Assembly (NCBI GenBank): GCA_001595385.3
Contig: LVEI03000002.1
Coordinates: 1-51,923 of the forward strand
Source: Deltaproteobacteria bacterium GWC2_55_46
GTDB taxonomy: Bacteria > Desulfobacterota > GWC2-55-46
Length of the DNA: 51,923 bases
Direction: 5' to 3'
Shown: piece after piece, positions 3,935 through 16,750 of the stretch
How the letters are laid out: each line of letters begins with the position of its first letter
Position numbering within the stretch: the stretch's first letter is position 1
The notes under the pieces: model-generated
Database searches by the model: none
What the model was told of the DNA's origin: nothing
Seen by the model: only the letters and a program-made list of their open reading frames with translations
Made by a program: the position numbers and the translations under genes

Positions 3935-4408
3935 ATGAATGGAAAGAGGAATAGACCGAAGGCTACGGAAGAGAAAGATTCATGGCGTGACGTGCAGATC
4001 CTGTACGAGAGAATGGAACCAGCCATCAATAAGCTTGCCCGCAGGCTGATGAGGTTCGATGATACTTTGGACTTCGAGGATTTGAAGCAGCAGGCGTGGA
4101 TGGCGTTGAAGGCCGCCGTCACGAAGTACAGAAAGGGAAAGGGCGGTCAAATGAAGCTGGAGACCTACGCTTATTGGTACCTCCAGAAGCATTTCCACCT
4201 GGCAGTTGATGTTGACCGCGTGATTTACGACATATATGACAGGAACGGAAACCATGTGGAGTCATTGCGAGCCCGGGAATATACCCGGCGAAAAAAGGAT
4301 ATGCCGCCAGCACATACAGTTCGTAGCAGACGCGCGTTTGTGGACCTGACTAGAAAAGACACCGATGGAGACTGGATAGAAAACGTAGCTGCGGACAAAG
4401 CTGATTGA
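3935..4408 (+). CDS. Partial sigma-70-type factor: region 2 to 3 only
   Basis: This 157-residue protein reads like a sigma-70-family factor that stops before region 4. Residues 22-95 fit region 2: YERMEPAINKLARRLMRF, DTLDFEDLKQQAWMALKAAVTKY (core-binding helix and DLxQxxxxxL pattern), and KLETYAYWYLQKHF, which matches the FSTYAYWWIRQAI segment that melts the -10 element. The C-terminal FVDLTRKDTDGDWIENVAADKAD resembles the region 3.2 linker (SLD..., D.D, ...ADE) that precedes region 4 in normal factors. No region 4 helix-turn-helix follows; instead TGA is reached and a separate gene begins 26 bp on. A good site AAAGGGG precedes the ATG. Paired sigma subunits are known (SigO with RsoA in Bacillus subtilis). 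The same arrangement is inferred here. Confidence 0.72.
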   Translation: MNGKRNRPKATEEKDSWRDVQILYERMEPAINKLARRLMRFDDTLDFEDLKQQAWMALKAAVTKYRKGKGGQMKLETYAYWYLQKHFHLAVDVDRVIYDIYDRNGNHVESLRAREYTRRKKDMPPAHTVRSRRAFVDLTRKDTDGDWIENVAADKAD

Positions 4409-4434
4409 CGGCATAGACAATAGCGAGGTGGGCG

Positions 4435-5175
4435 ATGAGTATCGCTACTGTGGAACATGACGCTCAATTCAGAAAAGACCTACTCGATAAATTACTATGC
4501 AAGAAGGTTACATATCAGGACGTTAAGAGGCACAGGCTCTCGCAACGGGAGATGGAGTATCTCCATCTTTATGACATTCTCGACCGCCGCGAGTATGTCA
4601 GGTTGGTCATGCAGGGAGGGTATTCGAAGCAGGCGGCCTACAATAAATGGAGGAGGGTCGTCAAGGAGATCATAAAGGACTTCGACCCCAAGCCCCATGC
4701 TAACCTCATCGCCTTAATCAAAAAGAACGGTGAGGATCCGTCGGTATTGGAGATGTGGCTAACAGCCAGGTGTAAAGGCGGCATACCGGTGATGGACATA
4801 CTCACCTTCAGGGATTATATAGTCGATTTTCTCGGTCGCGTCAGGGACGATCTCTATGAAAAGAACACTTGTTTCACCCGCGAGGCAGCCAAAAAACTCG
4901 GAATGAGCCGTAGACAGATACAACGGCTCGCCAAAGATGGTGGTCTGCAAAAAAAGAACCGAGGCTTGTTTCCGGTGGAACAAGTGGTGGGTTATCAGGA
5001 GCGAAAAGACCTTTATCTCAGACAGCCTGTCATCAAAACGATTGATTCGTGTATTGAGAAGATACAAGAGTCAATCAATAGCATAGGGTTTTCAGTTGAG
5101 TTGCAGAGAAGCCTTGAAAAACTAACCCGTTTCATTAAGGTCGTTTCGGTCCAGGTTGACCGGAAAGCGACATGA
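4435..5175 (+). CDS. Sigma region 4-like plus second HTH protein (partner of split sigma)
   Basis: The 246-residue protein starts at an ATG preceded by GAGGTGGGCG, so it is a separate gene and not a simple frameshift product. Residues 16-82 (LLDKLL..., LSQREMEYLHLYDIL, GGYSKQAAYNKWRRVVKEI) follow the sigma region 4 layout: LPxRExEVLxLYY, a variable turn, then SxxAVYxRxRRAxKKL as the recognition helix. Residues 145-190 (CFTREAAKKLGMSRRQIQRLAKDGGLQKKNRGLFPVEQV) form a second, MerR/excisionase-type helix-turn-helix. The C-terminal third is helical. Together with the preceding gene it could supply a complete promoter-recognising factor, with the -35 determinant and an extra DNA-binding domain on a separate chain. 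The role is inferred from domain order and adjacency. Confidence 0.65.
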   Translation: MSIATVEHDAQFRKDLLDKLLCKKVTYQDVKRHRLSQREMEYLHLYDILDRREYVRLVMQGGYSKQAAYNKWRRVVKEIIKDFDPKPHANLIALIKKNGEDPSVLEMWLTARCKGGIPVMDILTFRDYIVDFLGRVRDDLYEKNTCFTREAAKKLGMSRRQIQRLAKDGGLQKKNRGLFPVEQVVGYQERKDLYLRQPVIKTIDSCIEKIQESINSIGFSVELQRSLEKLTRFIKVVSVQVDRKAT

Positions 5176-5276
5176 GGTTTGGAGTCCAAAGTTGACTGGA
5201 AGGCGACATGGGGATGTCGCTTTGTAGTCCAAAGTTGACCGAAAGGCGACATGGGGATGTCGCTTTGGAGTCCAAG
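5149..5276. repeat. 43-bp tandem repeat with internal hairpin (parS-like or operator)
   Basis: Two full 43-bp units start at 5184 and 5227, with partial units before (5149) and after (5270); the period is exactly 43 bp. Each full unit contains the palindrome GCGACAT-GGGG-ATGTCGC, a 7-bp perfect stem. The array begins inside the last codons of the preceding gene and ends about 70 bp before the ParB-like gene. Such a site next to a ParB gene may be a centromere or an autoregulatory operator. Confidence 0.65.
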
Positions 5277-5346
5277 ACATCCAAAACTGAAATTATTCAA
5301 TTTCATCGTTTAAGGCTTTGAAACCTTAAAAGGAGGGCTCTAAGCA

Positions 5347-6519
5347 ATGGAAAGAGGCAAAACAGTTTTCATCGAGACCAATAAACTCGTGGTAACTAAT
5401 CAACCAATGGAGTCTGCGGGGACTGAGGATGTGGAAAGGCTGAAGCAAAGTATAAGGACAATAGGTCTTCTATATCCTCTTCTCATAAGGTCTCTGCCTG
5501 ATGCAGACACCTTCGAGGTCCTTGATGGCCGGACCAGATTGGGGGCGCTTACGGATCTCGGTTACACCATGGTGGAATGTTCTCTTGCGGAGTCGGCGCA
5601 ACACGCCGGGATAATTCCGTATGATACCGAGCTGTGTCGCAGACATCTGAATGCGTCGCAAAGAAAAAATTTTGAAAAAGAGCGGAACGCATTAGCAGCG
5701 AGTTCCGTTTCCACACTCGTGGACCGCTTGATCCCGTCGTTGAGAGACAAGGCTTCGAGCATGCTGGAAAAATCGGATGTGACCAAAGAGGAAATAGATC
5801 TGATCTCGTCATGGGCACAGCTGTCCGAAAGCCAACAGGAGAATGCGCTTGAGCGCCTTTCATCTGCCGCTGTGGAGACCGCGGCTCAGGAGTATGAAGA
5901 AGAGCTCAAAGATCTTAAAGCCAGTAAAAAGGAGATTGAGGGAGAGCTGGAAGAAGCCAGAGCGCAGCTTAATGATAAGGAAAAGGAGTTTGAGCAAAGG
6001 CTCAAGGACTTCGCCGATGAGGCCAAGGATCGAGTTCAGGATATGCAGGAGAGCAAAAAACTGGTCATTCCTGATGACCCTGATGAAAAGGACAAGCTGA
6101 TAAAGAAAATAGAAAAAGAGTTGGCCAAGCAATACGCGGATAGCGTCAAGCATGCCAGGGCCAACCTCGAGAAGGCCAATGAGAACTACAAAAAGCTCCA
6201 GGCAGATCTGGAAAAGAAAAAAGACGATATCGAGTCACTTAAGCGTCAGCTGAAGGATACGAAGGCTGAGAACGAGAGTTATGAGGAAAATATTGCACTT
6301 TTTAGGGAGACGCTGGAGAAGGCCACGGACATAGAGAAAACGGTTCGTAAGCTCGAAGGCGTTTGCGATGACCTGAGGACGCTTAACGAGCTGATAATCG
6401 AGCGCAAGTTCACCTTGAAAGAGATCGGCGTCCCGAAGAAGAACCAGATCAAGAAGGTGCTGACCGATATACAGGACGCGTTGTCAGGCACCATGGATAT
6501 CGTGAAGGATATCGCATGA
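5347..6519 (+). CDS. ParB-like N-terminal domain with long coiled coil
   Basis: Residues about 12-80 match the ParB/RepB/Spo0J nuclease-like domain (EDVERLKQSIRTIGLLYPLLIRSL, then FEVLDGRTRLGALTDLGYTMVEC), the part that in ParB proteins binds CTP or shares the Srx fold. From about 175 to 330 there is an almost unbroken E/K-rich coiled coil (YEEELKDLKASKKEIEGELEEAR...), unusual for plasmid ParB, which normally has a central HTH and a short dimer domain. The 390-residue protein therefore may be a DNA-organising or regulatory relative rather than a classical partition protein. No ParA gene is next to it. The start is supported by AAAGGAGGG ten bases before ATG, and the 43-bp hairpin repeats just upstream are a candidate binding site. 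Confidence 0.7.
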   Translation: MERGKTVFIETNKLVVTNQPMESAGTEDVERLKQSIRTIGLLYPLLIRSLPDADTFEVLDGRTRLGALTDLGYTMVECSLAESAQHAGIIPYDTELCRRHLNASQRKNFEKERNALAASSVSTLVDRLIPSLRDKASSMLEKSDVTKEEIDLISSWAQLSESQQENALERLSSAAVETAAQEYEEELKDLKASKKEIEGELEEARAQLNDKEKEFEQRLKDFADEAKDRVQDMQESKKLVIPDDPDEKDKLIKKIEKELAKQYADSVKHARANLEKANENYKKLQADLEKKKDDIESLKRQLKDTKAENESYEENIALFRETLEKATDIEKTVRKLEGVCDDLRTLNELIIERKFTLKEIGVPKKNQIKKVLTDIQDALSGTMDIVKDIA

Positions 6520-6667
6520 TGGCACTATCGAAGGCAGGGAGGGGGAGCTAAACGCTCCCCCTGATTTGGAGCGGTTGATAGAGAGGATAGGTGAAGGGCT
6601 GAAAAGAGGTGATATCTGTATAGAGATATTACCTTTGAATGCATCTTAAAAGTCGCAAGGATCGTAA

Positions 6668-6844
6668 ATGGCAAAGTCGATTGATAGTGTTTTTTTGGAA
6701 AAAACAAGGCAAGAATTTAGCCAGGCGTATAACGGTAAAATAAATAGGAATGACGCAAAGGAAATTGCTCGGAATGTCTTTGATTTTTTTAAATTAATTC
6801 ACGAATGGGAAATAAAGGACGACCAAAAAGGTGGGTCTAAATGA
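6668..6844 (+). CDS. Small protein upstream of recombinase (58 aa)
   Basis: A 58-codon frame starting MAKSIDSVFLEKTRQEF and ending FDFFKLIHEWEIKDDQKGGSK. The segment DAKEIARNVFDFFKLIHEWE follows a pattern I have seen in short proteins encoded beside recombinases and phage genes, where an EEA.EI..N...FF.LL.EWD helix is conserved. The function is unknown. It lies 73 bp before the recombinase start, and its stop codon is buried in the stem of the terminator at 6825-6857. Confidence 0.6.
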   Translation: MAKSIDSVFLEKTRQEFSQAYNGKINRNDAKEIARNVFDFFKLIHEWEIKDDQKGGSK

Positions 6845-6857
6845 CCCCCTTTTTTTA
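6825..6857 (+). terminator. Intrinsic terminator overlapping a stop codon
   Basis: AAAAAGGTGGGTC pairs with GACCCCCTTTTTTT around a TAAAT loop and is followed by a T-run. The TGA stop of the small gene lies in the stem, so the transcript ends almost directly after translation ends. The recombinase downstream therefore probably has its own promoter. Confidence 0.75.
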
Positions 6858-6917
6858 TTGTTTCGGAGGCTGAATTGTAATAAAATTTTCCCTAAACAAA
6901 CCAAAAGGTTTTTGGAT

Positions 6918-8387
6918 ATGCCTGAAATCAAAAAAGCTATTATTTACGCCAGGGTATCAAGTAAAGAGCAGGAAAAAGAGGGGTATTCCATACCCGCTCA
7001 ATTGAAGCTTTTAAACGATTACGCTTATTCAAACGGTGTTCTTGTCGTTAAAGAATATGTAGACGTTGAAACGGCCAAAAAGGCCGGTCGCGCCAATTTC
7101 AAGGAGATGATCAGTTTTTTGCAATCGCATGATGATGTCAAGACAGTTCTCGTCGAGAAAACAGACAGGCTGTATCGTAATTTTAAGGATTATGTAACGC
7201 TGGAAGATCTCGATTTGGATATTCATTTGGTAAAGGAAGGAGAAACCTTAAATAGAAATTCGCGATCTCATGTGAAGTTCATTCACGGCGTTAAGCTTTT
7301 GATGGCGAAAAATTATATAGATAACCTTTCTGAAGAAGTAAAGAAAGGGATGAGGGAAAAGGTCGCTCAAGGCGGCTTTCCCAATAAAGCTCCAATCGGA
7401 TATTTCAACAATAAGGAGACTCGTCGCGTAGAGATTGATAATCAGAAAGCTTTTTACATAAAAGAGATATTTGAACTCTACGCAACAGGAAAGTATTCCT
7501 TAAATATATTAAGAGAGAAATGTCTTAAAGACGGTTTTGTAACGAGAAAGTCAGAAAAAAGAATCAGCAAGAGCAATTTGGAGTATTTACTGAAGAATGT
7601 TTTCTATACCGGTCATTTCCGCTGGTGTGGTGATGTGCACAAGGGAACCCATGAACCTATTATCAGCGGAGAACTTTTTAATAAGGCCCAGGAGGCTTTC
7701 AAGATCCACAATAAGCCGGTAAAAAAGGGCATCGGAAAGAAGGAATTTGCGTTTGGTAATTTACTTAAATGCGGGCATTGTGGTTTATCGATTACCGCTG
7801 AAATAAAAAAGAACAAGTACATTTACTATCGTTGCACCGGCTTCAGAGGCAAATGCGGGCAGCCTTATGTAAGGGAAGAAGACTTACGGAGAAAATTCGG
7901 AAACGTTGTAAAGGCGATTCAAATCGGCGAGGAAAAGTTGGAATGGCTCAGAGAGGCGCTCAAGATGAGCCATCTGGATGAAAAGGCATACCATGGTAAA
8001 AAAATAAAGGAATTGCAGGCACGGTACAATAAGTTTCAGAATAGAATAGACCAGGCTTATGTGGACAAGCTCGACAAGAAAATATCAGAGGATTTTTGGC
8101 TGGTCAAAACTCAGGATTGGAAAAAAGACCAAGAGGATGTGGCTTTAAGGCTGAAGGCCCATCAAAACGCCAACATGAATTACATGTGGGACGGATTGAA
8201 GATCATGGAATTGGCTGAAAAGGCCTATGCGCTTTTCATGAAACAGGACGCCTTCGAGCAGGCTCGCCTGCTCAAAATAATACTTTCGAACTGCGACTTG
8301 AACGACGGAAACCCTTGTCCTACCTACAGAAAACCCTTCGACCTCTTTGCGGAAAACTCGAAAAAGAAAAAATGGCTGGGGGACTAG
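6918..8387 (+). CDS. Large serine recombinase (site-specific integrase type)
   Basis: This 489-residue recombinase has the resolvase/invertase catalytic domain first: KKAIIYARVSSKEQEKEGYSIPAQ with the nucleophile serine at residue 14, and VEKTDRLYRNFKDY, the E.TDR.xR motif. Then comes the recombinase domain (GFPNKAPIGYFNN..., YTGHFRWCGDVHKGTHEPIIS), a zinc ribbon (KCGHCGLSITAEIKKNKYIYYRC...KCGQPYV) and a coiled-coil tail. Such enzymes integrate and excise phages and mobile islands at short att sites. The ATG at 6918 is chosen because the conserved domain begins right after it; upstream codons overlap a terminator. AT-rich codon use differs from the core genome. The last five codons (WLGD and stop) lie in the tRNA-Gln fragment, which places its element against that tRNA gene. 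Confidence 0.93.
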   Translation: MPEIKKAIIYARVSSKEQEKEGYSIPAQLKLLNDYAYSNGVLVVKEYVDVETAKKAGRANFKEMISFLQSHDDVKTVLVEKTDRLYRNFKDYVTLEDLDLDIHLVKEGETLNRNSRSHVKFIHGVKLLMAKNYIDNLSEEVKKGMREKVAQGGFPNKAPIGYFNNKETRRVEIDNQKAFYIKEIFELYATGKYSLNILREKCLKDGFVTRKSEKRISKSNLEYLLKNVFYTGHFRWCGDVHKGTHEPIISGELFNKAQEAFKIHNKPVKKGIGKKEFAFGNLLKCGHCGLSITAEIKKNKYIYYRCTGFRGKCGQPYVREEDLRRKFGNVVKAIQIGEEKLEWLREALKMSHLDEKAYHGKKIKELQARYNKFQNRIDQAYVDKLDKKISEDFWLVKTQDWKKDQEDVALRLKAHQNANMNYMWDGLKIMELAEKAYALFMKQDAFEQARLLKIILSNCDLNDGNPCPTYRKPFDLFAENSKKKKWLGD

Positions 8388-8416
8388 GATTCGAACCTAG
8401 ATAAACGGAGTCAGAG
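8373..8416. repeat. Left attachment repeat (3' fragment of tRNA-Gln)
   Basis: Forty-four bases identical to 16677-16720, corresponding to the tRNA-Gln gene from the anticodon loop to the CCA end on the minus strand. Beyond 8416 the match to the tRNA stops, so this copy is not a functional tRNA. It marks the left junction (attL) of the island. The 3' end of the serine recombinase gene overlaps its first 15 bases. Confidence 0.92.
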
Positions 8417-8463
8417 GACTTTATCTGGACTTTCCCTAACATTCCCGAAACTGCACAAAACCC

Positions 8464-8493
8464 TTGACAATACAGCACCTTCCTTGATATTCT
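8464..8493 (+). promoter_or_regulatory. Candidate promoter for the integrase
   Basis: TTGACA (8464-8469) and TATTCT (8488-8493) are separated by 18 bp, about 165 bp before the integrase start. Arm-type repeats lie between this promoter and the gene, so integrase binding could repress its own transcription. No other good promoter is seen in the left end of the island. Confidence 0.45.
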
Positions 8494-8538
8494 CCTTCCT
8501 AAGCATACCCTGAGTTGCCTTCTGTTTCAGCTAAAAAA

Positions 8539-8637
8539 ACTGGACAGATGCTGGACAGAAAACCGGGCTGAGATAAACGGGCATTGCACACGAAGTTGTT
8601 TTTTTAGGGGTTGAAAAGCTGGACAAAGCTGGACAGG
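8539..8637. repeat. Arm-type integrase sites, left end
   Basis: ACTGGACAGATGCTGGACA at 8539-8557 holds two CTGGACA motifs 11 bp apart, and 8619-8636 holds another close pair (CTGGACAAAGCTGGACAG). The same 19-mer recurs at 16576-16594 near the other end. Tyrosine integrases of this kind use such repeated arm sites on both sides of the core. Confidence 0.7.
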
Positions 8638-8655
8638 CACCGTAAAGGAGGGTTC

Positions 8656-9876
8656 ATGGCACGATGGATAAAGGCTACTAAAGGCGTTCGTTATAAGGAG
8701 CACGAAACCCGCAAGCATGGAGTTTCAAAGGACAGGTACTACACTATTTTCTATCGAGTGAATGGCAAGCAAATTGAAGAAGGGCTTGGATGGGCCTCTG
8801 AGGGATGGACAGAGGACGAGGCAGTTGAGGTGCGAGCCGCGCTTAGAAAGAACCGTCGCAATTCAGAGGGACCCCGGACTCTTGCCGAAAAGAAAGCTAT
8901 CGAGGAAAAAAAGCGCCGGAAGGAGGCCGAGCAAAAGGAGCAAGAGGCAAGGGACAATATCACCTTCTCCGAGTATGCCCTGGGAGCTTACAAGGCAAGC
9001 AGAGACGAGAAAACCTGGACGCGGGAAGAACAGGTTATCCGTTTATGGCTTGAGTCCGTTATCGGTGCACTGCCCTTGAAGGACATAGCGCCTTTTCATT
9101 TCGAGATAATGAGAGCGAATATGGCTAAGGCCAATCGTGCCCGGCATACCGTCCGCTATGTTCAAGGGGTTGCCCGGCAGATATTCAATCATGCTATGGA
9201 GGACGAAAAGTTTACCGGCCTAAATCCTGCCCGGACTATTAAAAAGGGTAAAGGGAGGCTTAAGTTGCCGGACAATAAAAGGCTTCGCTTCCTTACAAGG
9301 GAACAAGCGGATGAGCTTCTCGCCAAACTCGCCACAATAAGCCCTGAGGTACGCGACATGAGCCTTATAAGCCTTCATACAGGCATGAGGGCCGGAGAGG
9401 TTTTTGGGCTTGTATGGCAGGACGTGGACGTTAATAAGGGACTATTGGCAGTGAAGGACACCAAGAGCGGAAAGAACCGGACGGCCTTTATGACTGAGGC
9501 CGTGAAGGAGGTTTTCAGGTCCAGGGAGCGCGGCTTGCCTTCCGAGCACGTCTTTAAGTCTACACGGGGCGGGAGGATAAAACAGATAAGCCTTACATTC
9601 GCGCGGGCGGTTGACGCGCTCAAAATGAATGAGGGAATTAAGGATCGGCGGCACAGAATTGTCTTTCATTCGTTACGCCACAGCTATGCCTCTTGGCTCG
9701 TTGAAAATGGAACGGACCTTTACACGGTCAAGGAGTTGTTAGGCCATAGCGACATAGCCATGACGCAGCGGTACGCGCACCTGGGCGAGAACACCTTACA
9801 GGCCGCCGTTAAGAAGCTGGACGCTACCCTACAGGCGCCCGGCAAGGTAGTTGCGCTGGCGAAGAAGGAGGGCTGA
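8656..9876 (+). CDS. int: Tyrosine integrase of the island
   Basis: The 406-residue tyrosine recombinase should insert and excise the island at tRNA-Gln. The N-terminal part (about 1-100) is a basic arm-binding region with a K/E-rich linker; the core-binding domain covers about 105-205 (ITFSEYALGAYKASRDEKTW...NHAMEDEKFTGLNPA). The catalytic domain shows R245 (HTGMRAGE), H338 and R341 (FHSLRHSYAS), H364 (LLGHSDIAM) and nucleophile Y373 (RYAH). The start at 8656 is chosen because AAAGGAGGG sits just upstream and a longer TTG frame would run through the arm repeats. The next gene begins three bases after the stop, so the two are probably coupled. Confidence 0.96.
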   Translation: MARWIKATKGVRYKEHETRKHGVSKDRYYTIFYRVNGKQIEEGLGWASEGWTEDEAVEVRAALRKNRRNSEGPRTLAEKKAIEEKKRRKEAEQKEQEARDNITFSEYALGAYKASRDEKTWTREEQVIRLWLESVIGALPLKDIAPFHFEIMRANMAKANRARHTVRYVQGVARQIFNHAMEDEKFTGLNPARTIKKGKGRLKLPDNKRLRFLTREQADELLAKLATISPEVRDMSLISLHTGMRAGEVFGLVWQDVDVNKGLLAVKDTKSGKNRTAFMTEAVKEVFRSRERGLPSEHVFKSTRGGRIKQISLTFARAVDALKMNEGIKDRRHRIVFHSLRHSYASWLVENGTDLYTVKELLGHSDIAMTQRYAHLGENTLQAAVKKLDATLQAPGKVVALAKKEG

Positions 9877-9879
9877 GAT

Positions 9880-10548
9880 ATGAGGAAGAAAAAAGAAATC
9901 ACGCCGTCTAGCAGCCAGAACAACATCATGTATGCCGTTGATAATGATGCCCGGATAGCCGACCATATCAGGGAAGTCAAAAATTACGCGACCGCTGACG
10001 ATGCGGTATTAAGCTGGTTGGTTGGTTGCTATGAGGAAGCTGTTAAAGACAAGAGACTCGATGGCCCCAAACACGCGGTGGAGATATTCTGGAAAAAGGT
10101 AAGCGAGGTTGCGCCGGATACTCTGAAAGCGGTATTAAACCGCGCCAGGCTGCCATATATCGAGCACGCACTGGATAATATAAGGCCGCTCGACTTCGAC
10201 CAGCTACAGGCCGTACAGGAGCTTGTGAAGATGAATCCGGCGATTCTGCGGCTGCCCTTTATACAAGATACTTTTATAAATTTGTTGAGGACGCATACAT
10301 ATACGAGCGAAGGTGGAGGAGATGAACTGCGTAATATATGGAAGGGGTTTTTACATACTCGCCCCTGCGGCAAAGTAAAACACGCACCCGATGCAATCGC
10401 AGACCTTGTAACAATGGCGGTTGAGAAGGGCGAGACACGGGTAAGCGCCTACGATACAGTAGCTTCAGGGCTGGGCGTTGGCGAGCGATTCGTCCGGGAG
10501 ATAGCCGGGGAAAAGGGTAAACGAGGGAGGCCGAAAAGTGGCAAGTAG
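9880..10548 (+). CDS. Hypothetical island protein (222 aa)
   Basis: I do not recognise this family. It begins three bases after the integrase stop and ends before a terminator. The N-terminal part is polar; residues about 75-140 are helical and hydrophobic (LKAVLNRARLPYIEHALDNIRPLDFDQLQAVQELV). The C-terminus contains SAYDTVASGLGVGERFVREIAGEKGKRGRPKSGK, in which ASGLGVGERFVREI looks like a helix-turn-helix of the kind that scans for host factors and GKRGRPKSGK is a basic AT-hook-like tail. A DNA-binding regulator of the island is possible but not shown. Confidence 0.6.
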   Translation: MRKKKEITPSSSQNNIMYAVDNDARIADHIREVKNYATADDAVLSWLVGCYEEAVKDKRLDGPKHAVEIFWKKVSEVAPDTLKAVLNRARLPYIEHALDNIRPLDFDQLQAVQELVKMNPAILRLPFIQDTFINLLRTHTYTSEGGGDELRNIWKGFLHTRPCGKVKHAPDAIADLVTMAVEKGETRVSAYDTVASGLGVGERFVREIAGEKGKRGRPKSGK

Positions 10549-10591
10549 AATAAACGAGTAACCATATTCAGAATAAAAACCTTCAAGTACT

Positions 10592-10627
10592 ATGGGAACT
10601 GTCAACACGAAGTTCCCATTTTTTTAT
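10592..10627 (+). terminator. Intrinsic terminator after the integrase operon
   Basis: ATGGGAACT (10592-10600) and AGTTCCCAT (10611-10619) form a 9-bp perfect stem with a 10-nt loop, followed by a T-run. It separates the integrase operon from the AlpA-like/primase operon. Confidence 0.85.
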
Positions 10628-10643
10628 TTCAAGGAGGTTCAAA

Positions 10644-10886
10644 ATGCAAGACGAAGTTTTCGAGCTTATGGCAAGGCAGCACGGGAGCCCGCTTGTTGCC
10701 CGCGCCGACATAAGCAAATTCACCGGAGGGGCGATAACTCCAAAATGGTGTGCGAATATGGATTCGCAAGGCACCGGGATTAAGGGCCGTTTCTTCATCG
10801 GGCGGCGCGTTGTTTATCCGGTTGCGTCGGTTATCGAATTCCTCAAGGCCCACGCGAAGGCGAGCTACAGGGGCGAGGCGAAGTAA
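10644..10886 (+). CDS. AlpA/MerR-like helix-turn-helix regulator
   Basis: This 80-residue protein follows the short prophage and satellite regulator pattern in which LVARADISKFTGGAITPKWCANMDSQGTG forms the helix-turn-helix and GRFFIGRRVVYPVASVIEFLKAH the wing and final helix. Relatives act as excisionases or as activators of integrase and replication genes (AlpA, satellite P4 Vis). AAGGAGG sits at a good distance before the ATG. The primase-helicase starts one base after its stop, so it probably heads the replication operon and may control excision. Confidence 0.75.
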   Translation: MQDEVFELMARQHGSPLVARADISKFTGGAITPKWCANMDSQGTGIKGRFFIGRRVVYPVASVIEFLKAHAKASYRGEAK

Positions 10887-10887
10887 C

Positions 10888-13161
10888 ATGGGCAAGCTGA
10901 CCCCTGACCTCGATATGGCTCGCCGTCACCTCCTCTTGCTCGATGAGGACGCAGCGGAATTTACCTTCCAGACTTTTCCCGACTCGAAGAAGGGCGGCTT
11001 GTCACTGGCGTGTAGTACTGGCGTTCTTCGCGGCACTCTTGATGAGTACGCAGCGGAATTTACCAGGCTACAGGCTCGCGGGGCTGGAGTATTCGTGGTC
11101 GTCAACAGAGGCGGGCGCACGAAGGCTCAAATCACACACGCCAGGGCTATATGGCGGGAAGATGATACAGGTGGACTCCCTCCTCTTCCTCTTGAGCCGC
11201 ATTTCGTTATCCAGACTTCACCAGGCAAGCACCACGAATATCTTTTGATTGAACCTTCCGATGACCTCGACACTACCGACGCCATAATGGAGCGCATGGT
11301 CGAAGACTACGGCAGCGACCCTCAAGCGAAAGACCGCTCCCGCGTTCTACGGCTTGCCGGATTCTATCATCTGAAAGACCCCGCGCACCCGCACCTTGTA
11401 AAGATTATCCATGAAGGCGGCGGGCTGCCGTACACCCTTGAAAAAGTGGCTGAGAGCATCCCGCCATTAAAAAAGAGTACAAAGGCTGCGGCTCGGGTAG
11501 GCGAGACAATTATCGACGGGGCGCGGGACGCTACTTTAACATCATTGGCCGGTACCATGCGGCGGCGCGGTTTTTCCGAGGCCGCAATCCTGGCCGCGCT
11601 CCGAGTAGAGAATCAAGAAAAATGTAGTCCTCCGCTCCCTGACAGCGAATTACAGAAGATTGCCAGGAGCGTTGCTCAATACGAACCGACAATCACCCCG
11701 GATGACGACTATGTTTTCAAGGCCGCCTTTGAAGGACAGAAAGGGGGCGCCTCTTTATTTATCCGGCTCAACAAGAACCGCTTTTGCTTCGACCATGCCT
11801 CAGGCGTTTGGCACACTTGGAGGACGCACTACTGGGAGCGCGAACCCCTGGGGGAACCCCTCAAGGCCGTCGATGCCGTCGCGGAACTTTTCCGGGGGGC
11901 GGCAGCGAGGTGCAAGGGCGAGATAATCGTACTCGGGCAGACTGCAAAAAGCGGAGACGACCGCGACGTCGAACTCAAGGCGACTATCGAAAAATTGCAG
12001 GCCAGGCAAAAGGCGTGTCTCACGCAGGTCTCTAATTTAAATTCACTCGGGTACAGGAAGCAAGTCATAGAATTTGCCGCGCAAGGCCCTGGGAGCCTCG
12101 GAATCACTGGCGAGGAGTGGGACCTGCACCCGTGGTTACTGCCATGCGCTAATGGCGTGGTGGACCTCAAGAGCGCGCAAATAAGGCCCGGTGCCCCTGA
12201 AGATTATTTAAAAACAATATGTCCGACACCCTATTCCCCGGATGCCGCTTGCGCTCGCTGGGAACAGACGCTATACGAAATTTTCGATGGGCAGAAGGAG
12301 CTTATCTCGTTTTATCGGCGGCTCCTCGGAGCGGCTATCGTCGGTGCGGCCATCGAGCATATCCTCCCGGTGCTTCACGGGATAGGGCGCAATGGGAAGG
12401 ATACAACACTGGAGGCGGTCTCCCATGTACTGGGGGACCTCGCCGGGCCTGTTCAATCTGAGTTGTTGCTTGAGCAGGGGCGCGCCCGGTCTTCCGCCGG
12501 GCCTTCCGCCGACATCATGGCACTGAGGGGCCGCCGTATTGCCTGGGCTTCAGAAACAAACGAAGGCCGCAAGCTGGATAGCGGTCGGGTAAAACTTCTC
12601 ACAGGGGGCGGGGCCTTAGTGGGTAGGCCGCCGTTTGGGAGGAGGGAAATATCTTTTCCACAGAGCTACACCTTATTCCTTCTTACGAATGCGAGGCCCC
12701 ATGTTAACTCCGACGATTACGCACTTTGGAAACGTCTTTTACTCATACCCTTCGGGATCTCTTTTGTTGATGACCCACAGGCCCCGCATGAGCGTCGCAA
12801 AATTCCGAATATGGCAGACACGCTAAGGCGCGAGGCTCCAGGCATACTCGCTTGGCTGGTGCGCGGTTGTCTTGCCTGGCAGCGGGAAGGGTTGAATCCG
12901 CCGGAGATCGTCAAGGTCGCCACGGAAGATTACCGCGAAGATGAGGACCTCCTTCTTCGCTTCATCGAGGACTCCTGCGAGGTTCACCATGATGCCGAGG
13001 TCGGGGCCGCGCTCCTTTACCAGGCATACACGAACTGGTCGGCGGCTATGAATATAAAGCCGATGAGCGGGACAGCGTTCGGGAGGAAAATGAGTGTGAG
13101 ATACCAAAAGGCTAAGGGGCGGTTGGGTGCTTTTTATACCGGCCTGAAGTTGGCTCTGTGA
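10888..13161 (+). CDS. P4-type primase-helicase (RepB-like primase, PriCT, SF3 helicase)
   Basis: The 757-residue protein combines three blocks. Residues about 55-190 resemble the RepB-type primase domain (GVFVVVNRGGRTKAQI, HFVIQTSPGKHHEYLLIE, SRVLRLAGFYHLKDP). Residues about 205-265 match a primase C-terminal domain (ATLTSLAGTMRRRGFSEAAILAALRVEN...ELQKIARSV). The C-terminal half is a D5_N/superfamily 3 helicase with Walker A at about 498 (GIGRNGKDTT), RRIAWASETNEG as the B region, and LWKRLLLIPFGISFVDD with the arginine finger. Such proteins start and unwind DNA at satellite, plasmid or phage origins. The ATG at 10888 is chosen because the upstream part of the frame overlaps the AlpA-like gene. 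Repeats just after its stop are a possible origin. Confidence 0.93.
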   Translation: MGKLTPDLDMARRHLLLLDEDAAEFTFQTFPDSKKGGLSLACSTGVLRGTLDEYAAEFTRLQARGAGVFVVVNRGGRTKAQITHARAIWREDDTGGLPPLPLEPHFVIQTSPGKHHEYLLIEPSDDLDTTDAIMERMVEDYGSDPQAKDRSRVLRLAGFYHLKDPAHPHLVKIIHEGGGLPYTLEKVAESIPPLKKSTKAAARVGETIIDGARDATLTSLAGTMRRRGFSEAAILAALRVENQEKCSPPLPDSELQKIARSVAQYEPTITPDDDYVFKAAFEGQKGGASLFIRLNKNRFCFDHASGVWHTWRTHYWEREPLGEPLKAVDAVAELFRGAAARCKGEIIVLGQTAKSGDDRDVELKATIEKLQARQKACLTQVSNLNSLGYRKQVIEFAAQGPGSLGITGEEWDLHPWLLPCANGVVDLKSAQIRPGAPEDYLKTICPTPYSPDAACARWEQTLYEIFDGQKELISFYRRLLGAAIVGAAIEHILPVLHGIGRNGKDTTLEAVSHVLGDLAGPVQSELLLEQGRARSSAGPSADIMALRGRRIAWASETNEGRKLDSGRVKLLTGGGALVGRPPFGRREISFPQSYTLFLLTNARPHVNSDDYALWKRLLLIPFGISFVDDPQAPHERRKIPNMADTLRREAPGILAWLVRGCLAWQREGLNPPEIVKVATEDYREDEDLLLRFIEDSCEVHHDAEVGAALLYQAYTNWSAAMNIKPMSGTAFGRKMSVRYQKAKGRLGAFYTGLKLAL

Positions 13162-13330
13162 CGGGTGTGACGGGTTTGACCCCATTTGTCATATCCTTGT
13201 TGCGCGAGAGTTTTAAAAAATGAGTTAAGGGAAAGAGTTACACAAAAGCCTCAAACCCGTCACAAGAGTAAAGGGAAAAGGCGATAACCACTTAATATCT
13301 AAGGTGTTTTTGGTGTGTGACGGGTTTGAC
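13157..13330. repeat. TGTGACGGG repeats after the primase gene (possible origin or operator)
   Basis: TGTGACGGG occurs twice in tandem at 13157-13174, then in reverse within TCAAACCCGTCACA (13251-13264), then again at 13316-13324; three copies extend to TTTGA. The first copy overlaps the primase stop codon. The spacing of about 90 and 60 bp and the AT-rich DNA between them suit an origin of replication recognised by the primase-helicase, or an operator for the genes to the right. Confidence 0.55.
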
Positions 13331-13354
13331 TGACCCAGCACCTACGGAGATAAA

Positions 13355-13621
13355 ATGGATACGGAAAAGGTGATCCCGGTACTTATGGCATGGGATTGGG
13401 GTGATGGAATTCACTGTATAACCTGGTGTGAACACTGCCGACGGTATCATTGGCATGGTCTTGGAGACGGCCACAGGTGGGCGCACTGTTCACATCCTCC
13501 TGAGACCCCTTTCATGGAGACGGGCTACATCATCAAGGTGGTGGGGCCGGTGCCGCCGGAGATAAAGAAGGATGCTGATAGGAGAAAACCAAGAGGCCCG
13601 GAGGTACCGTGGAAAAATTGA
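13355..13621 (+). CDS. Small Cys/His-rich protein (88 aa)
   Basis: The 88-residue protein carries WCEHCRRYHWHGLGDGHRWAHCSHPPETPF, a dense cluster with a CxxC pair and several histidines that should bind one zinc ion, followed by a basic C-terminus. I have seen similar small zinc proteins on prophages and actinobacterial elements, always without known function. The ATG follows GGAG closely. It is separated from the primase gene by the TGTGACGGG repeats and so may belong to a second transcription unit. Confidence 0.65.
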   Translation: MDTEKVIPVLMAWDWGDGIHCITWCEHCRRYHWHGLGDGHRWAHCSHPPETPFMETGYIIKVVGPVPPEIKKDADRRKPRGPEVPWKN

Positions 13622-13692
13622 AGAGACTACGGGCGGCCCTCTTGCGCTTCCTTTATAGCCTTCAGTGGGCGGGCAGAGCTTGTGGACTATGA
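13609..13692 (+). CDS. Possible 27-aa peptide
   Basis: A GTG at 13609, preceded by CCGGAGG, opens a 27-codon frame (EKLKRLRAALLRFLYSLQWAGRACGL) overlapping the end of the Cys/His-rich gene. The peptide is amphipathic and hydrophobic. The good ribosome site and overlap support translation, but the length is too short to be sure. Confidence 0.3.
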   Translation: MEKLKRLRAALLRFLYSLQWAGRACGL

Positions 13693-13840
13693 AAAGGAAA
13701 AGCTCAATGATATTAAGGGCTTAGGGGGTACACCGGGGTTTTCACCTACCCACGTCACGTGCGGATACCAAGGCGCGACCCCTAAAAACGTTTCAGTTTT
13801 GAAACTTGATTGCTCTGGTTGACAAAATAAGGAGGGAATA

Positions 13841-14389
13841 TTGAAAAAACTCACGCAGGCAGGCTATGCCCGGCACCTGGGCGTTTCCCGGCAGATGATA
13901 TCAAAGCTCATTAAGGACGGCACGATAAAACTTATCGACGGCCTCATAGACCCCGTGGACGCTGATCGGCGAGTTGCCGAAAACAAGAACCCTATTCACG
14001 GCGGCAAGAGGCCCGTGGTCGAACCTGACGAAACTTTTAACGAGGCGAGGACGCGAAAAGAAAGAGCATTGGCTTCGCTCAGGGAATTGGAAGCAGATGA
14101 AAAATCGCGGACCCTTGTCAACGTCGATGAGATTCGTTTCTATTTTGCGGATGTTGCCACAACAGTAAAAACCCGGCTGAGGTCCATCCCGGCGTCGGTC
14201 GCTCAGGAGTGCGCACACATGGGTAAAACTCTTGAAGGACGGGCGGCGGCGGTCGCTATTATGAAGCTGTTAACGACGGCGATCGACGATGCCCTGAGGG
14301 AGTTGGTTCAGTGGCAGCCGAAAAGGAGGTACAACGCGGATGAAGAAAAAACTAACGGCGGTTCAAAAACTGATAAGGGAAGCTCTTAA
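13841..14389 (+). CDS. Terminase small subunit-like (Nu1-type) DNA packaging protein
   Basis: The 182-residue protein begins with a TTG preceded by AAGGAGGG. Residues 3-45 form a helix-turn-helix (TQAGYARHLGVSRQMISKLIKDGTI) and residues 65-165 are helical (FNEARTRKERALASLRELEADEKSRTLVNVDEIRFYFADVATTVKTRLRSIPASVAQE), the layout of Nu1-type small terminases such as lambda Nu1, with the LRSIPASVA segment well placed. Small terminases choose the DNA to be packaged. In satellites such as SaPIs, an island-encoded version redirects the helper phage packaging motor to island DNA. No large terminase follows intact, so that role is the likeliest reading. An exact family match cannot be run here. Confidence 0.7.
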   Translation: MKKLTQAGYARHLGVSRQMISKLIKDGTIKLIDGLIDPVDADRRVAENKNPIHGGKRPVVEPDETFNEARTRKERALASLRELEADEKSRTLVNVDEIRFYFADVATTVKTRLRSIPASVAQECAHMGKTLEGRAAAVAIMKLLTTAIDDALRELVQWQPKRRYNADEEKTNGGSKTDKGSS

Positions 14390-14432
14390 ATTTTTATCGC
14401 CAAAGCATAAGGCAAAGACCTGCCGCCGGTAG
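14340..14432 (+). CDS. Possible 30-aa peptide, perhaps remnant of a large terminase start
   Basis: An ATG at 14340, preceded by AAAAGGAGG, opens a 30-codon frame (KKKLTAVQKLIREALKFLSPKHKAKTCRR) overlapping the end of the small-terminase gene, exactly where a large terminase normally begins. It stops early. Just downstream, a different frame (14406-14478) reads as plausible coding sequence ending at TGA. This could be a collapsed terminase gene or a real short peptide. Confidence 0.3.
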   Translation: MKKKLTAVQKLIREALKFLSPKHKAKTCRR

Positions 14433-14475
14433 AGGCGGCCACAGATAAGCTCATCACGATGAGCGGGAGACTTCG

Positions 14476-15183
14476 ATGAAGACGAAATACACACCGGCAG
14501 TAGCTCTATCTATGATGTTGAAGAAGATGCAGGAGTACTCGAACTCCGGCCCTGGACAGCAGCAGGTACTCGCGGACATGGGGCGCTTGGCGGGTTCCGT
14601 CGAGGCGGTTGCCACGATTGCCGAAAACCCCGATGCCGACAGCTCGCCAGAACAGCGGCAAGCTCGCATCCTGAGGGCCGCAGCGAAACTTTCTGATGCT
14701 CTGCCCGGCGTCGAGGCGCGTTTGGCAAAACTCCGCTCCGAAACGGAGGCAGGCTTTGAGGCGGCCTTTGTTCAGAACAGCGGGTTGACTACGCCACAGA
14801 CGGCAAGCGAGATAAGGGCACACCTGAAGGCGCTTAAGGACCCGGCAGATCGTTCTGTCTTTCTCCAGGAGCTTGTCAAGAACGCCGATGATGCTGGGTT
14901 GGGTTCCGTACTTTTCGCGCCTCCCTACCTTAGCGGCCTGGACAATGTAACGCACTCGCGCCTCAAGGAGCAGATAGAAATACAGCGACTCCCAGACCTC
15001 CACAAAAACCGCGAGGTCTTCGCCGAGTTATCCGGGAACCTCCAGACTGCCCTCCACGAGGCAGGCCGGGCAGCGCATGAACTTGGAAACCCGTCAAAGC
15101 TGGACTCGATAGAGAGAAGGGCGAAAGCGGCGACGGAAGCTGAGGCGAGGCTGGCCCAGGGCACTCTGCCCGGAGGTGTTTAG
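14476..15183 (+). CDS. Hypothetical island protein (235 aa)
   Basis: I do not recognise this protein. It is soluble, almost wholly helical by composition (many A, E, L, R, K), and has no cysteine cluster or membrane segment. Residues 55-100 (SSPEQRQARILRAAAKLSDALPGVEARLAKLRSETEAGF) and 150-230 could form coiled coils. The following gene starts immediately after the stop. Its place, after the small-terminase-like gene where helper phages have portal and scaffold genes, allows a capsid-redirecting or scaffold-like role, but nothing in the sequence proves it. Confidence 0.6.
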   Translation: MKTKYTPAVALSMMLKKMQEYSNSGPGQQQVLADMGRLAGSVEAVATIAENPDADSSPEQRQARILRAAAKLSDALPGVEARLAKLRSETEAGFEAAFVQNSGLTTPQTASEIRAHLKALKDPADRSVFLQELVKNADDAGLGSVLFAPPYLSGLDNVTHSRLKEQIEIQRLPDLHKNREVFAELSGNLQTALHEAGRAAHELGNPSKLDSIERRAKAATEAEARLAQGTLPGGV

Positions 15184-15606
15184 ATGGACTTCACACCATC
15201 CCAACAAGCGTTCATCGACGCTCTGATTTCCAAAAAATACGCTGAAGCATATGCAAAGGCCGTGGAAAAATATGACGCAGCCACTCCAAAGGTTGTTACC
15301 GAGCTTCAGATGAAGCTCGCCGAGGCTCACGATAGACTCCGGCTTGCCTCGATAGAGAACGCCGCTATCGAGGGCGAGGCCGTAAACCCCGGACAGGTTA
15401 CCGTGCTGGTAGGCCCGTTTATAAAGGCCGATGCCGTGGGCGTGCTATCGGTCGTAGATGAACAAGGGGAGAGGCGTTACGACGGAACGGGCGCGGCTCT
15501 GAGCGTCAAGGCGTATGTTGAGGAATTCCTCGATAGCAACAAGCACTTGCGAAGAACGACTAAGCCCATATCGAGCGGCACTGGTTTTTTAAGAAGTTTT
15601 TTTTAA
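15184..15606 (+). CDS. Hypothetical island protein (140 aa)
   Basis: This gene begins with the base after the preceding stop codon and so is translationally coupled to it. The N-terminal 60 residues (TPSQQAFIDALISKKYAEAYAKAVEKYDAATPKVVTELQMKLAEAHDRLRLAS) are helical and the rest is beta-rich and polar (VTVLVGPFIKADAVGVLSVVDEQG). The chain ends in a stretch of phenylalanines (GTGFLRSFF), a feature sometimes seen in proteins recognised by a partner pocket. The function is unknown. Confidence 0.55.
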   Translation: MDFTPSQQAFIDALISKKYAEAYAKAVEKYDAATPKVVTELQMKLAEAHDRLRLASIENAAIEGEAVNPGQVTVLVGPFIKADAVGVLSVVDEQGERRYDGTGAALSVKAYVEEFLDSNKHLRRTTKPISSGTGFLRSFF

Positions 15607-15628
15607 CCCTATATTCTGGAGGCATGAA

Positions 15629-15778
15629 ATGTTTGACGAAAAATGGCAAAAAATAGTTGGCTCGGTCGATGTAGTGGCACCCGGCCCATGCCCGACTGTA
15701 ACGGTCTTGAGGGGCGGCGTAGAGGTAGACGTCAATGTCGAGGATGTTCTACCCGACGAGAAGGTCGTGAAGAGGTAG
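15629..15778 (+). CDS. Small acidic hypothetical protein (49 aa)
   Basis: Starting at ATG 15629 with GGAGGC upstream, the frame codes for MFDEKWQKIVGSVDVVAPGP and on to VEDVLPDEKVVKR, 49 residues. It is acidic and predicted beta-rich (VTVLRGGVEVDVNVEDV). It has the length of small phage regulators and anti-proteins. It lies 22 bp after the previous gene and before a GC-rich hairpin. Confidence 0.5.
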   Translation: MFDEKWQKIVGSVDVVAPGPCPTVTVLRGGVEVDVNVEDVLPDEKVVKR

Positions 15779-15789
15779 TCCACATGGCG

Positions 15790-15811
15790 CGGCCCTTCTC
15801 CGGAGGGGCCG
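15790..15811 (+). terminator. GC-rich hairpin
   Basis: CGGCCC (15790-15795) pairs with GGGCCG (15806-15811) in a 6-bp stem, followed by TCCTTTAT. The T-run is poor, so it may be a weak terminator or attenuating structure before the next gene. Confidence 0.35.
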
Positions 15812-15839
15812 TCCTTTATCTTGATGGAGGTATTATCAG

Positions 15840-16061
15840 ATGAAACGCGTAACGGCTTTTTTGAATAACCCGGCTACCAAGAGCGCCACAGGCCGTGCTC
15901 ACCTTGTGAAGTATTCAAAGGGCGGCACGCTCACGCAGCGGCAGGCTATCCATGCGAATTGTTACGACTGCATGGGCGGCTATTCGGACGGCAAACACAG
16001 TTGCCGGATTCCGAGTTGTGCGCTTTTCCCGTGGATGCCGTATAAAGACACTGACCGATAG
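15840..16061 (+). CDS. Cys-rich small phage-type zinc protein (73 aa)
   Basis: The 73-residue protein ends in QAIHANCYDCMGGYSDGKHSCRIPSCALFPWMPYK, a four-cysteine module of the form CxxCxGG...C...CxLxP that I have met in short proteins of many prophages and integrative elements; it should bind zinc. GGAGG precedes the ATG by about ten bases. Function unknown. It starts the group of three small genes at the right end of the island. Confidence 0.7.
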   Translation: MKRVTAFLNNPATKSATGRAHLVKYSKGGTLTQRQAIHANCYDCMGGYSDGKHSCRIPSCALFPWMPYKDTDR

Positions 16062-16136
16062 CCCTGAAAACCGTTTTCTATCTTCCAGCAGGCACGCTGG
16101 AGGGCACGCTGGCGATGGAAAGGCTCTGAATGGACG

Positions 16137-16331
16137 ATGGACAGGCTCAAGGCTCTATGGGTAGAGGAAAAGAGGCTCGACCGCCTTTCCGTCCAGGCGC
16201 ATTACCGCGAGGACCGGGAAGCAATGGCCAGAATACGGCGGGAATACCTCAAGGTGGTCGATAGGCTCATATCGTTGGTGGTTCTACCGGAGAGACGGAA
16301 CACACCCGGCAAAACAGGACGGAGGTCTTAG
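16137..16331 (+). CDS. Small helical hypothetical protein (64 aa)
   Basis: This 64-residue basic protein (MDRLKALWVEEKRLDRLSV...MARIRREYLKVVDRLISL) is almost entirely helix, heptad-like and charged. No family is recognised. Its stop lies two bases before the next ATG, so the two genes are coupled. The ribosome site is weak. Confidence 0.45.
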   Translation: MDRLKALWVEEKRLDRLSVQAHYREDREAMARIRREYLKVVDRLISLVVLPERRNTPGKTGRRS

Positions 16332-16333
16332 AT

Positions 16334-16498
16334 ATGATGGTTTACGGATGCACACGATGCTCATCGGTTTTTGATTTCGTAAATAAAAAAGAAGGTCGTC
16401 TCTGTGACCATTGCGCAGCTCCCTTGAGTTTCCACGGCGAGGAGGTTTCACCCTGGGGCGAGCACCCATGCCTTAAAGATTATGATGCTGCCGTATGA
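16334..16498 (+). CDS. Two-CxxC zinc ribbon protein (54 aa)
   Basis: A 54-codon frame from ATG 16334 (GGAGG upstream) with CTRC at residues 6-9 and CDHC at 24-27, the two knuckles of a rubredoxin-like zinc ribbon, then a polar tail. Such ribbons serve in many small DNA- or protein-binding proteins, so the job here is unknown. It is the last gene before the terminators and the right att repeat. Confidence 0.6.
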   Translation: MMVYGCTRCSSVFDFVNKKEGRLCDHCAAPLSFHGEEVSPWGEHPCLKDYDAAV

Positions 16499-16533
16499 CC
16501 CTCCCCACGCCTACCACGGCTCCTTGCCGGAAG

Positions 16534-16570
16534 GCCGCTCCCTGAAAAGGTGGGCGGCTTTTTTATTTTG
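16534..16570 (+). terminator. Terminator at the right end of the island operon
   Basis: GCCGCTCCC and GGGCGGC pair (one bulged base) around TGAAAAGGT, followed by a run of six T and TATTTTG. It ends the rightward island operon. Confidence 0.75.
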
Positions 16571-16575
16571 TCCAA

Positions 16576-16594
16576 ACTGGACAGATGCTGGACA
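16576..16594. repeat. Arm-type integrase site, right end
   Basis: The 19-mer ACTGGACAGATGCTGGACA is identical to 8539-8557. It sits 82 bp before the right 44-bp att repeat. Two such sites flanking the cores agree with a lambda-type att arrangement for the tyrosine integrase. Confidence 0.7.
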
Positions 16595-16636
16595 AATACC
16601 CCTTAGAGGAAAGAGGCACTAAAAAAGAAGATAAAG

Positions 16637-16672
16637 AAAAGCCCCGTAACTCGTTAGAATTACAGGGCTTTT
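16637..16672. terminator. Bidirectional hairpin between island and tRNA-Gln
   Basis: AAAAGCCC and GGGCTTTT pair, with an inner GTAA/TTAC, around a short loop. The A-run and T-run on either side allow termination in both directions: the island operon on the plus strand and tRNA-Gln on the minus strand. Confidence 0.65.
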
Positions 16673-16676
16673 AAAT

Positions 16677-16720
16677 TGGCTGGGGGACTAGGATTCGAAC
16701 CTAGATAAACGGAGTCAGAG
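16677..16720. repeat. Right attachment repeat within tRNA-Gln
   Basis: The second copy of the 44-bp att sequence is the 3' part of the complete tRNA-Gln gene. Because the island brings an identical 3' end, the tRNA stays functional after integration. Crossover probably occurs in or near the anticodon stem-loop, where the identity ends. Confidence 0.92.
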
Positions 16721-16750
16721 TCCGTTGTCCTGCCGTTAGACGATCCCCCA
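16677..16750 (-). tRNA. tRNA-Gln (anticodon CTG)
   Basis: On the minus strand the sequence starts TGGGGGATCG and ends TCCCCCAGCCA, giving a 7-bp acceptor stem with encoded CCA. The anticodon arm is ACGGA-CTCTGAC-TCCGT with anticodon CTG, and the T arm carries GTTCGAATC. This reads CAG codons. It is the integration site of the island; its 3' end coincides with the att repeat. Confidence 0.95.

What the first reader, a model, noticed from the sequence alone, without database searches (positions are those of the whole stretch)
8373..16720. Phage-satellite-like island with perfect 44-bp att repeats at tRNA-Gln
The island is fully bounded by identical repeats of the tRNA 3' part, has integrase, AlpA-like regulator, P4-type primase-helicase and a small-terminase-like protein, and lacks all structural genes. 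The size (8.3 kb) and content fit PICI/P4-like satellites, which are poorly described outside Firmicutes and Gammaproteobacteria.
Basis: partly seen in the sequence, partly recalled or inferred. Interest (0 to 1): 0.8.

Follow-up and report, generated by a model that had tools for sequence, protein, structure and literature searches.

The report
Phage-satellite island at tRNA-Gln
An 8.3-kb mobile DNA island sits in a glutamine tRNA gene of an unnamed bacterium; it appears to be a parasite of bacterial viruses that brings its own replication, DNA-packaging and capsid-scaffold genes and borrows the rest of the virus particle, and a sister island elsewhere in the same chromosome even carries its own capsid-protein gene.

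Summary
A perfect 44-bp repeat (8373-8416 / 16677-16720), the 3' part of tRNA-Gln(CTG), bounds an 8.3-kb, 85% coding, one-strand island with tyrosine integrase, AlpA-like protein, P4-family primase-helicase and small terminase. Best reading: a PICI-like phage satellite; the anatomy is shown, the biology inferred. (1) A scaffolding-protein homologue (15184-15606) downstream of terS, lacking the C-terminal end conserved in its relatives. (2) Integrase arm-type repeats inside both ends and iterons behind the primase. (3) A sister island at tRNA-Leu in the same genome that shares integrase, AlpA-like protein, scaffold, two orphan genes, arm sites and ori layout, and carries a major capsid gene (63% identical to that of a phage fragment in a relative) but no portal, large terminase or tail. 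The two orphan families were found nowhere else (63 and 395 genomes). No helper prophage was found in the host; its only head-tail gene set seen is a GTA-like cluster conserved across the order. The island fails tested features of P4, cfPICI and PICMI and some of PICI: a new variant of a known kind. Excision, helper and packaging remain untested.

The parts
8373..8416 (.). distal att repeat (44 bp, 3' part of tRNA-Gln)
   Evidence: identical to 16677-16720
16677..16720 (.). att repeat inside the intact tRNA-Gln
16677..16750 (-). tRNA-Gln(CTG), integration target
   Evidence: ARAGORN; tRNA-Gln next to yceD in congeners
8540..8557 (+). putative integrase arm site CTGGACA-N4-CTGGACA, left end
   Evidence: 2 found in window, 0.01 expected
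8619..8635 (+). further CTGGACA pair, 3-nt spacing, before int
16577..16594 (+). putative integrase arm site, right end, same 18 bp
8656..9876 (+). tyrosine integrase, 406 aa
   Evidence: PF00589 1.2e-33, phrog_1 2.2e-66
9880..10548 (+). 222-aa protein contiguous to int, unknown
   Evidence: no significant family match
10644..10886 (+). AlpA-like small HTH protein (putative excisionase/activator), 80 aa
   Evidence: homologue in sister island 38%, 4e-14
10888..13161 (+). primase-helicase: RepB_primase + PriCT_1 + D5_N, P4 family, 757 aa
13157..13329 (.). iteron cluster TGTGACGGGTTTGA (3 exact, one of them inverted, plus one with 1 mismatch): putative replication origin
   Evidence: 4 found, 0.20 expected
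13355..13621 (+). 88-aa unknown
   Evidence: no match
13841..14389 (+). terminase small subunit, 182 aa, TTG start behind AGGAGG
   Evidence: phrog_57 3.2e-33; homologues directly beside lambda-type (GpA) large terminases in L056 and L057
14476..15183 (+). 235-aa all-helical orphan, shared only with the sister island
15184..15606 (+). scaffolding-protein homologue, 140 aa, without the conserved C-terminal segment
   Evidence: phrog_206 5e-5; hhalign E 7.8e-18 to columns 19-148 of 220; annotated scaffolds of Pelagibacter phages; alignments
15629..15778 (+). 49-aa ORF behind GGAGG, unknown
15840..16061 (+). 73-aa Cys-containing protein
   Evidence: weak match to the Cys protein of the sister island, E 0.004
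16137..16331 (+). 64-aa orphan, 69% identical to its counterpart in the sister island
16334..16498 (+). 54-aa zinc-ribbon-like protein
   Evidence: weak Pfam matches only

Best explanation
A temperate phage satellite of PICI-like design. Integrated at the anticodon loop of tRNA-Gln, it leaves the tRNA intact. When a helper phage infects or is induced, the AlpA-like protein and the integrase, acting on the 44-bp core and the CTGGACA arm sites, excise it as a circle; the primase-helicase starts replication from the iterons behind its gene. Its own TerS then directs a helper's lambda-type (GpA) large terminase to satellite DNA, and the scaffold homologue (perhaps with the 235-aa protein) alters or competes in assembly of the helper's head. 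The sister island takes a related route with its own coat and scaffold proteins. Shown by sequence: boundaries, gene families, arm repeats, iterons, sister island, absence of virion genes. Inferred: excision, replication, helper identity, packaging, capsid redirection.
For: Perfect tRNA att pair, tRNA restored on joining flanks. Integrase, P4-family primase and TerS. Arm pairs YTGGACA-N4-YTGGACA inside both ends of both islands and nowhere else in the 52 kb and 20 kb searched, expected 0.01 and 0.04. Iterons behind the primase in both. Sister island L042 (tRNA-Leu, about 10.5 kb): integrase 34%, AlpA-like 38%, 235/221-aa 27%, scaffold 38%, 64/82-aa 69%, with a major capsid protein phrog_283 3e-91. 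TerS homologues sit beside GpA-type large terminases in relatives. A phage fragment in G022 carries GpA-type terminase, portal, scaffold and capsid (capsid 63% identical to the sister's), and the scaffolds of both islands group with its scaffold apart from the GTA-like ones (long branches). A tRNA-Met island in G005, bounded by a 46-bp perfect repeat, pairs a 66-67%-identical primase N-terminus with TerS, xis and int. In three congeners tRNA-Gln beside yceD is conserved and has no island.
Against: No helper prophage found in the host genome: no PF05876 or PF03354 large terminase, and the only convincing phrog_2 hit is the GTA-like cluster; an external helper is needed. The scaffold homologue lacks the C-terminal part that binds coat protein in studied phages, so its role is uncertain. 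The AlpA-like protein fails the AlpA models. No repressor identified. No read data, so excision is unproven.
Confidence: 0.75

Rival explanations
1. A decayed remnant of a temperate phage or of a once larger satellite: the capsid module was lost (the sister island keeps it), leaving a truncated scaffold gene, and the element no longer moves.
For: The scaffold ends before the conserved C-terminus and no capsid gene or remnant follows. The sister island carries an IS30-type element beside a partial scaffold ORF and its att copies are only 83% identical over 59 nt.
Against: Perfect 44-bp att, intact arm pairs, all main ORFs open, most with ribosome sites, 85% coding. Two islands at different tRNAs share the same plan; fewer nonsynonymous than synonymous changes per site between them for every shared gene (ratios 0.46-0.72, near saturation for several, so weak evidence).
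Confidence: 0.15
2. A non-phage integrative element (plasmid-like or mobilisable) that picked up a terS-like DNA-binding gene.
For: RepB-type primase domain and iterons resemble plasmid replication modules.
Against: No relaxase or mobilisation match in any ORF scanned; TerS and scaffold homologues both point to phage assembly; the sister carries a capsid gene; no similar plasmid DNA at megablast sensitivity.
Confidence: 0.06
3. The island is packaged by the host's own GTA-like particles rather than by a helper phage.
For: The GTA-like cluster is the only head-tail gene set found in the genome and its scaffold is homologous to the island's.
Against: The island's TerS type stands beside GpA-type large terminases in relatives, not the phrog_2-type terminase of the cluster; the island scaffold groups with a phage scaffold, not the cluster's (with a long-branch warning).
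Confidence: 0.04

Closest known systems
PICI, especially SaPIs with operon I (terS plus capsid switcher; PMC6092414, PMC12409344)
   Same: Site-specific integrase, primase followed by origin-like repeats, TerS, a protein related to a phage scaffold (compare CpmB/Rcm), no virion genes.
   Different: 8.3 kb instead of about 15 kb; all genes on one strand, no divergent repressor pair; the scaffold homologue lacks the C-terminus that CpmB uses to bind coat protein (PMC5644958); relationship to known PICI genes beyond int, primase and TerS not seen.
SaPIbov5 Ccm (homologue of helper capsid protein, PMC8569155)
   Same: The sister island carries a capsid-protein gene without the rest of the head, as SaPIbov5 carries Ccm.
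   Different: Full-length capsid protein of family phrog_283 next to a full scaffold gene; function untested.
P4-like satellites
   Same: Primase-helicase of the P4 family (TIGR01613), integrase, small HTH-like regulator, tRNA site.
   Different: No match to any P4 capsid or packaging gene; own TerS instead.
cfPICI and Mulch/Flayer satellites (PMC10690885)
   Same: The sister island encodes its own capsid protein and scaffold.
   Different: No large terminase, portal, protease or connector recognised in either island.
PICMI (PMC10803314)
   Same: Small, int with a contiguous unknown gene, AlpA-like protein, primase.
   Different: Other primase type (D5_N, not DUF3987/DUF5906), tRNA not fis site, carries TerS and scaffold homologue.

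Membership tests
phage satellite (general) | site-specific integration with integrase and att repeats | tested here: met
phage satellite (general) | own replication gene, no complete virion gene set | tested here: met
   no capsid, portal, large terminase or tail match
phage satellite (general) | dependence on and packaging by a helper phage | not testable with these tools
   no helper prophage found in own genome with three terminase families
PICI | int, regulator, pri/rep, ori, then interference/terS in this order | tested here: met
   order int, AlpA-like, primase, iterons, TerS, scaffold
PICI | divergent regulatory gene pair (Gram-positive) or AlpA activator (Gram-negative) | tested here: inconclusive
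   no divergent pair; the AlpA-like protein has no Pfam match at E<1, its homologue only HTH_17 at 0.012
PICI | size around 15 kb (Gram-positive description) | tested here: not met
   8348 bp
[quoted passage not shown]
   none in this island, though a scaffold homologue is present; the sister island does carry a capsid gene
PICI | phage-induced excision and packaging | not testable with these tools
   needs experiment
P4-like | P4-family primase (alpha) | tested here: met
   TIGR01613 206.4 bits over cut-off 108.7
P4-like | sid, psu, delta, epsilon | tested here: not met
   no such match in PHROGs or Pfam
cfPICI | own capsid, protease, portal, connectors, TerL and TerS | tested here: not met
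   only TerS and scaffold homologue here; capsid and scaffold in the sister
PICMI | int, AlpA model, DUF3987/DUF5906 primase, fis site | tested here: not met
   D5_N primase, tRNA site, no AlpA match
prophage | large terminase, portal, capsid, tail, lysis genes | tested here: not met

The most novel reading that the evidence does not exclude
Two sister satellites in one chromosome divide the head-assembly toolkit (one with TerS and a shortened scaffold, the other with capsid protein and scaffold) and either act together or exploit the order-wide GTA-like particle as their vehicle; the latter would be a satellite of a gene transfer agent, a kind I know no example of.
Probability: 0.06. Interest if true: 0.85.

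Novelty: new variant of a known kind. Interest (0 to 1): 0.55.

Why it matters
If the reading holds, PICI-like satellites with TerS and scaffold homologues exist in a little-known lineage, and a single genome offers two related satellites that took different parts of the same head-assembly module. That makes a natural comparison for how satellites gain or lose capsid genes, between the TerS-plus-scaffold-relative strategy and the capsid-protein strategy known separately from SaPIs. The conserved arm repeats, iterons and orphan genes give search keys for more members.

Tried and rejected
First family scans failed for a wrong primase start, repeated with 10888. Related loci of the primase, its N-terminus and the 235-aa protein in the viral and genome collections: none, so the organism could not be named, and satellites outside the genomes searched may have been missed by these peptide-pattern scans. 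Structure prediction of the scaffold homologue (pLDDT 83) and of the 235-aa protein (pLDDT 73, two sequences) gave mainly helical models with no PDB match at E<=0.001. Remnant of a capsid gene in the island: no significant tblastn hit. A +1-frame link between the scaffold homologue and the 49-aa ORF across a T8 run was considered by eye; the 49-aa ORF has its own GGAGG, so it is taken as separate. Defence genes in the island: no PADLOC match for the proteins scanned. The second phrog_2 hit in the host (C1:2234793) lies by position in a PhoH-like ORF and was set aside. Prophage rejected for lack of virion genes; PICI membership not claimed because induction and packaging are untested and some described features differ.
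Full report
Observation. The island is bounded exactly as stated. The maximal exact repeat is 44 bp (8373-8416 and 16677-16720), runs from the CCA end of tRNA-Gln(CTG) to its anticodon loop, and the tRNA at 16677-16750 (minus) is intact. A 24-bp core is not expected by chance, and the tRNA sequence occurs only at these two places in the host genome of 2.79 Mb in 3 contigs. Joining the flanks gives an intact tRNA-Gln; the left copy alone does not. In congeners G001, G002 and G005 the same tRNA-Gln stands beside the same yceD-like gene and the following kilobases hold other genes, with no island. The immediate left flank (a serine recombinase at 6831-8387 whose stop codon lies in the repeat) is probably another mobile element, so an aligned empty site in a relative was not available.

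Genes. All main ORFs run on the plus strand, 85% coding, most with clear ribosome sites. Integrase PF00589 1.2e-33; primase-helicase with RepB_primase, PriCT_1 and D5_N, over the cut-off of TIGR01613 (P4 family); TerS phrog_57 3.2e-33 over nearly its whole length. The 80-aa protein is AlpA-like only in position and through a homologue in the sister island. No capsid, portal, large terminase, tail or lysis gene is recognised. The missing end holds a motif K-T-M-x-R-A-x-F-D-x-L shared by the sister-island and phage scaffolds, and a similar M-P-R-E-x-L-D-R-L in the GTA-like ones. In 80alpha and SaPI1 the C-terminal end of scaffold and of CpmB binds coat protein (PMC5644958), so the island protein may co-assemble with a helper scaffold without holding coat protein, or may be decaying; sequence cannot decide.

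DNA sites. The 18-bp direct repeat CTGGACA-GATG-CTGGACA lies inside both ends (8540-8557, 16577-16594), 0.01 expected in the window. The sister island has TTGGACA-GGGG-TTGGACA inside both of its ends, 0.04 expected. I read them as integrase arm sites with 11-bp spacing. Behind the primase gene stand copies of TGTGACGGGTTTGA, 4 found with up to 2 mismatches and 0.20 expected; the sister island has another iteron set, built on AAACCGGACA, at the same place. The order primase then origin is that described for PICIs (PMC6092414).

Sister island. Searches with the primase and scaffold led to G000:C1 (locus L042). It is bounded by tRNA-Leu (5493-5579) and a copy of its 3' part (15986-16044, 83% over 59 nt), about 10.5 kb. 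It shares the integrase (34%), AlpA-like protein (38%), a primase stretch of about 80 residues (68%), the 235/221-aa protein (27%), the scaffold (38%) and the 64/82-aa protein (69%). It carries a 379-aa major capsid protein (phrog_283 3e-91; 58% identical to that of Acinetobacter phage vB_AbaS_qsb1) but no portal, large terminase or tail gene was recognised. The 235-aa family was found nowhere else in 63 genomes of the class, the 64-aa family nowhere else in 395 genomes of the phylum.

Helper type. TerS homologues lie directly beside GpA-type large terminases in G006 and G015. In G022 a short contig carries GpA-type terminase, portal, scaffold and capsid in a row; that capsid is 63% identical over 203 aligned residues to the sister island's. 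The scaffolds of both islands and of this phage group together, apart from the GTA-like scaffolds (100/99 support, but with a long-branch warning). This suggests a helper of that kind. None was found in the host genome: no PF05876 or PF03354 terminase, and phrog_2 only in the GTA-like cluster. Other terminase families were not searched.

Related islands. G005 carries a 20.6-kb island bounded by a 46-bp perfect repeat at tRNA-Met, with a primase whose N-terminus is 66-67% identical to the window's while the rest differs, plus TerS, excisionase and integrase. G009 has the same gene order on a short contig. Mosaic exchange of primase domains and the TerS-int combination support a pool of such elements.

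Mechanism. Shown: boundaries, gene families, arm repeats, iterons, sister island. Inferred: excision by integrase and AlpA-like protein, replication from the iterons, TerS redirecting a helper's large terminase, scaffold homologue and perhaps the 235-aa protein acting on head assembly. The combination of TerS with a scaffold relative works like operon I of SaPIs (PMC12409344); the sister's capsid gene recalls Ccm of SaPIbov5, a homologue of the helper capsid protein (PMC8569155, abstract). Neither island has the full set of capsid and packaging genes that defines cfPICIs (PMC10690885).

Verdict. A probable phage satellite, PICI-like in the way it should work, not shown to be a PICI or P4 member, best called a new variant of a known kind. 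The organism could not be named with the tools; a library search for phage satellites together with two guessed phyla gave no paper, which says little because the phylum is not known.

Noticed in passing
L046:14611 to L047:7553 (G000:C1, about 2219.6-2232.6 kb): A GTA-like cluster: large terminase, portal, scaffold, capsid, tail genes and a peptidase-like ORF, with no integrase or replication gene seen, between prs-hppA-ychF and lpxC-phoH. The same upstream neighbours occur in G002, G005, G010, G016, G018, G025 and G040; the portal is in 34 of 63 class genomes, all in the host's own order, identity falling with kinship; dN/dS 0.05-0.21 for four genes. Possibly a gene transfer agent; particles untested.
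   Followed up: partly
L131 and L045/L132 (G005:C20:265791-286434): The tRNA-Met island of G005 carries a Cas12b gene (PADLOC 4.6e-175), a Cas4-Cas1 fusion, a CRISPR array of at least 14 repeats and a type I restriction system beside primase, TerS, xis and int.
   Followed up: partly
L080 spacer s5 against L050:7750-7778: One spacer of that array matches 28 of 29 nt of a primase-like gene in a prophage of congener G001, which has a GpA-type large terminase.
   Followed up: partly
window 3935-8387: A sigma-70-region-2 protein, an HTH protein, a ParB-N coiled-coil protein and a serine recombinase whose stop codon lies in the att repeat: probably a separate mobile element.
   Followed up: no
window 2-244 minus: ORF resembling the start of an IS21-type transposase (by eye) at the very end of the contig, so the left chromosomal junction is unknown.
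   Followed up: no
L042:8562-9778: An IS30-type transposase (by eye) beside a partial first scaffold-like ORF in the sister island; the full scaffold ORF follows.
   Followed up: no
L049 (G002:C1:1325000-1344999): An element with integrase, D5 primase, a protease-capsid-like protein (phrog_4523 1.3e-94) and a tape-measure-like ORF but no obvious large terminase in the stretch read.
   Followed up: no
L043:14258-20000 and L044 (G000:C2): A further D5-type primase element beside tRNA-Pro in the host; no second copy of the last 20 nt of the tRNA found within 34 kb.
   Followed up: no
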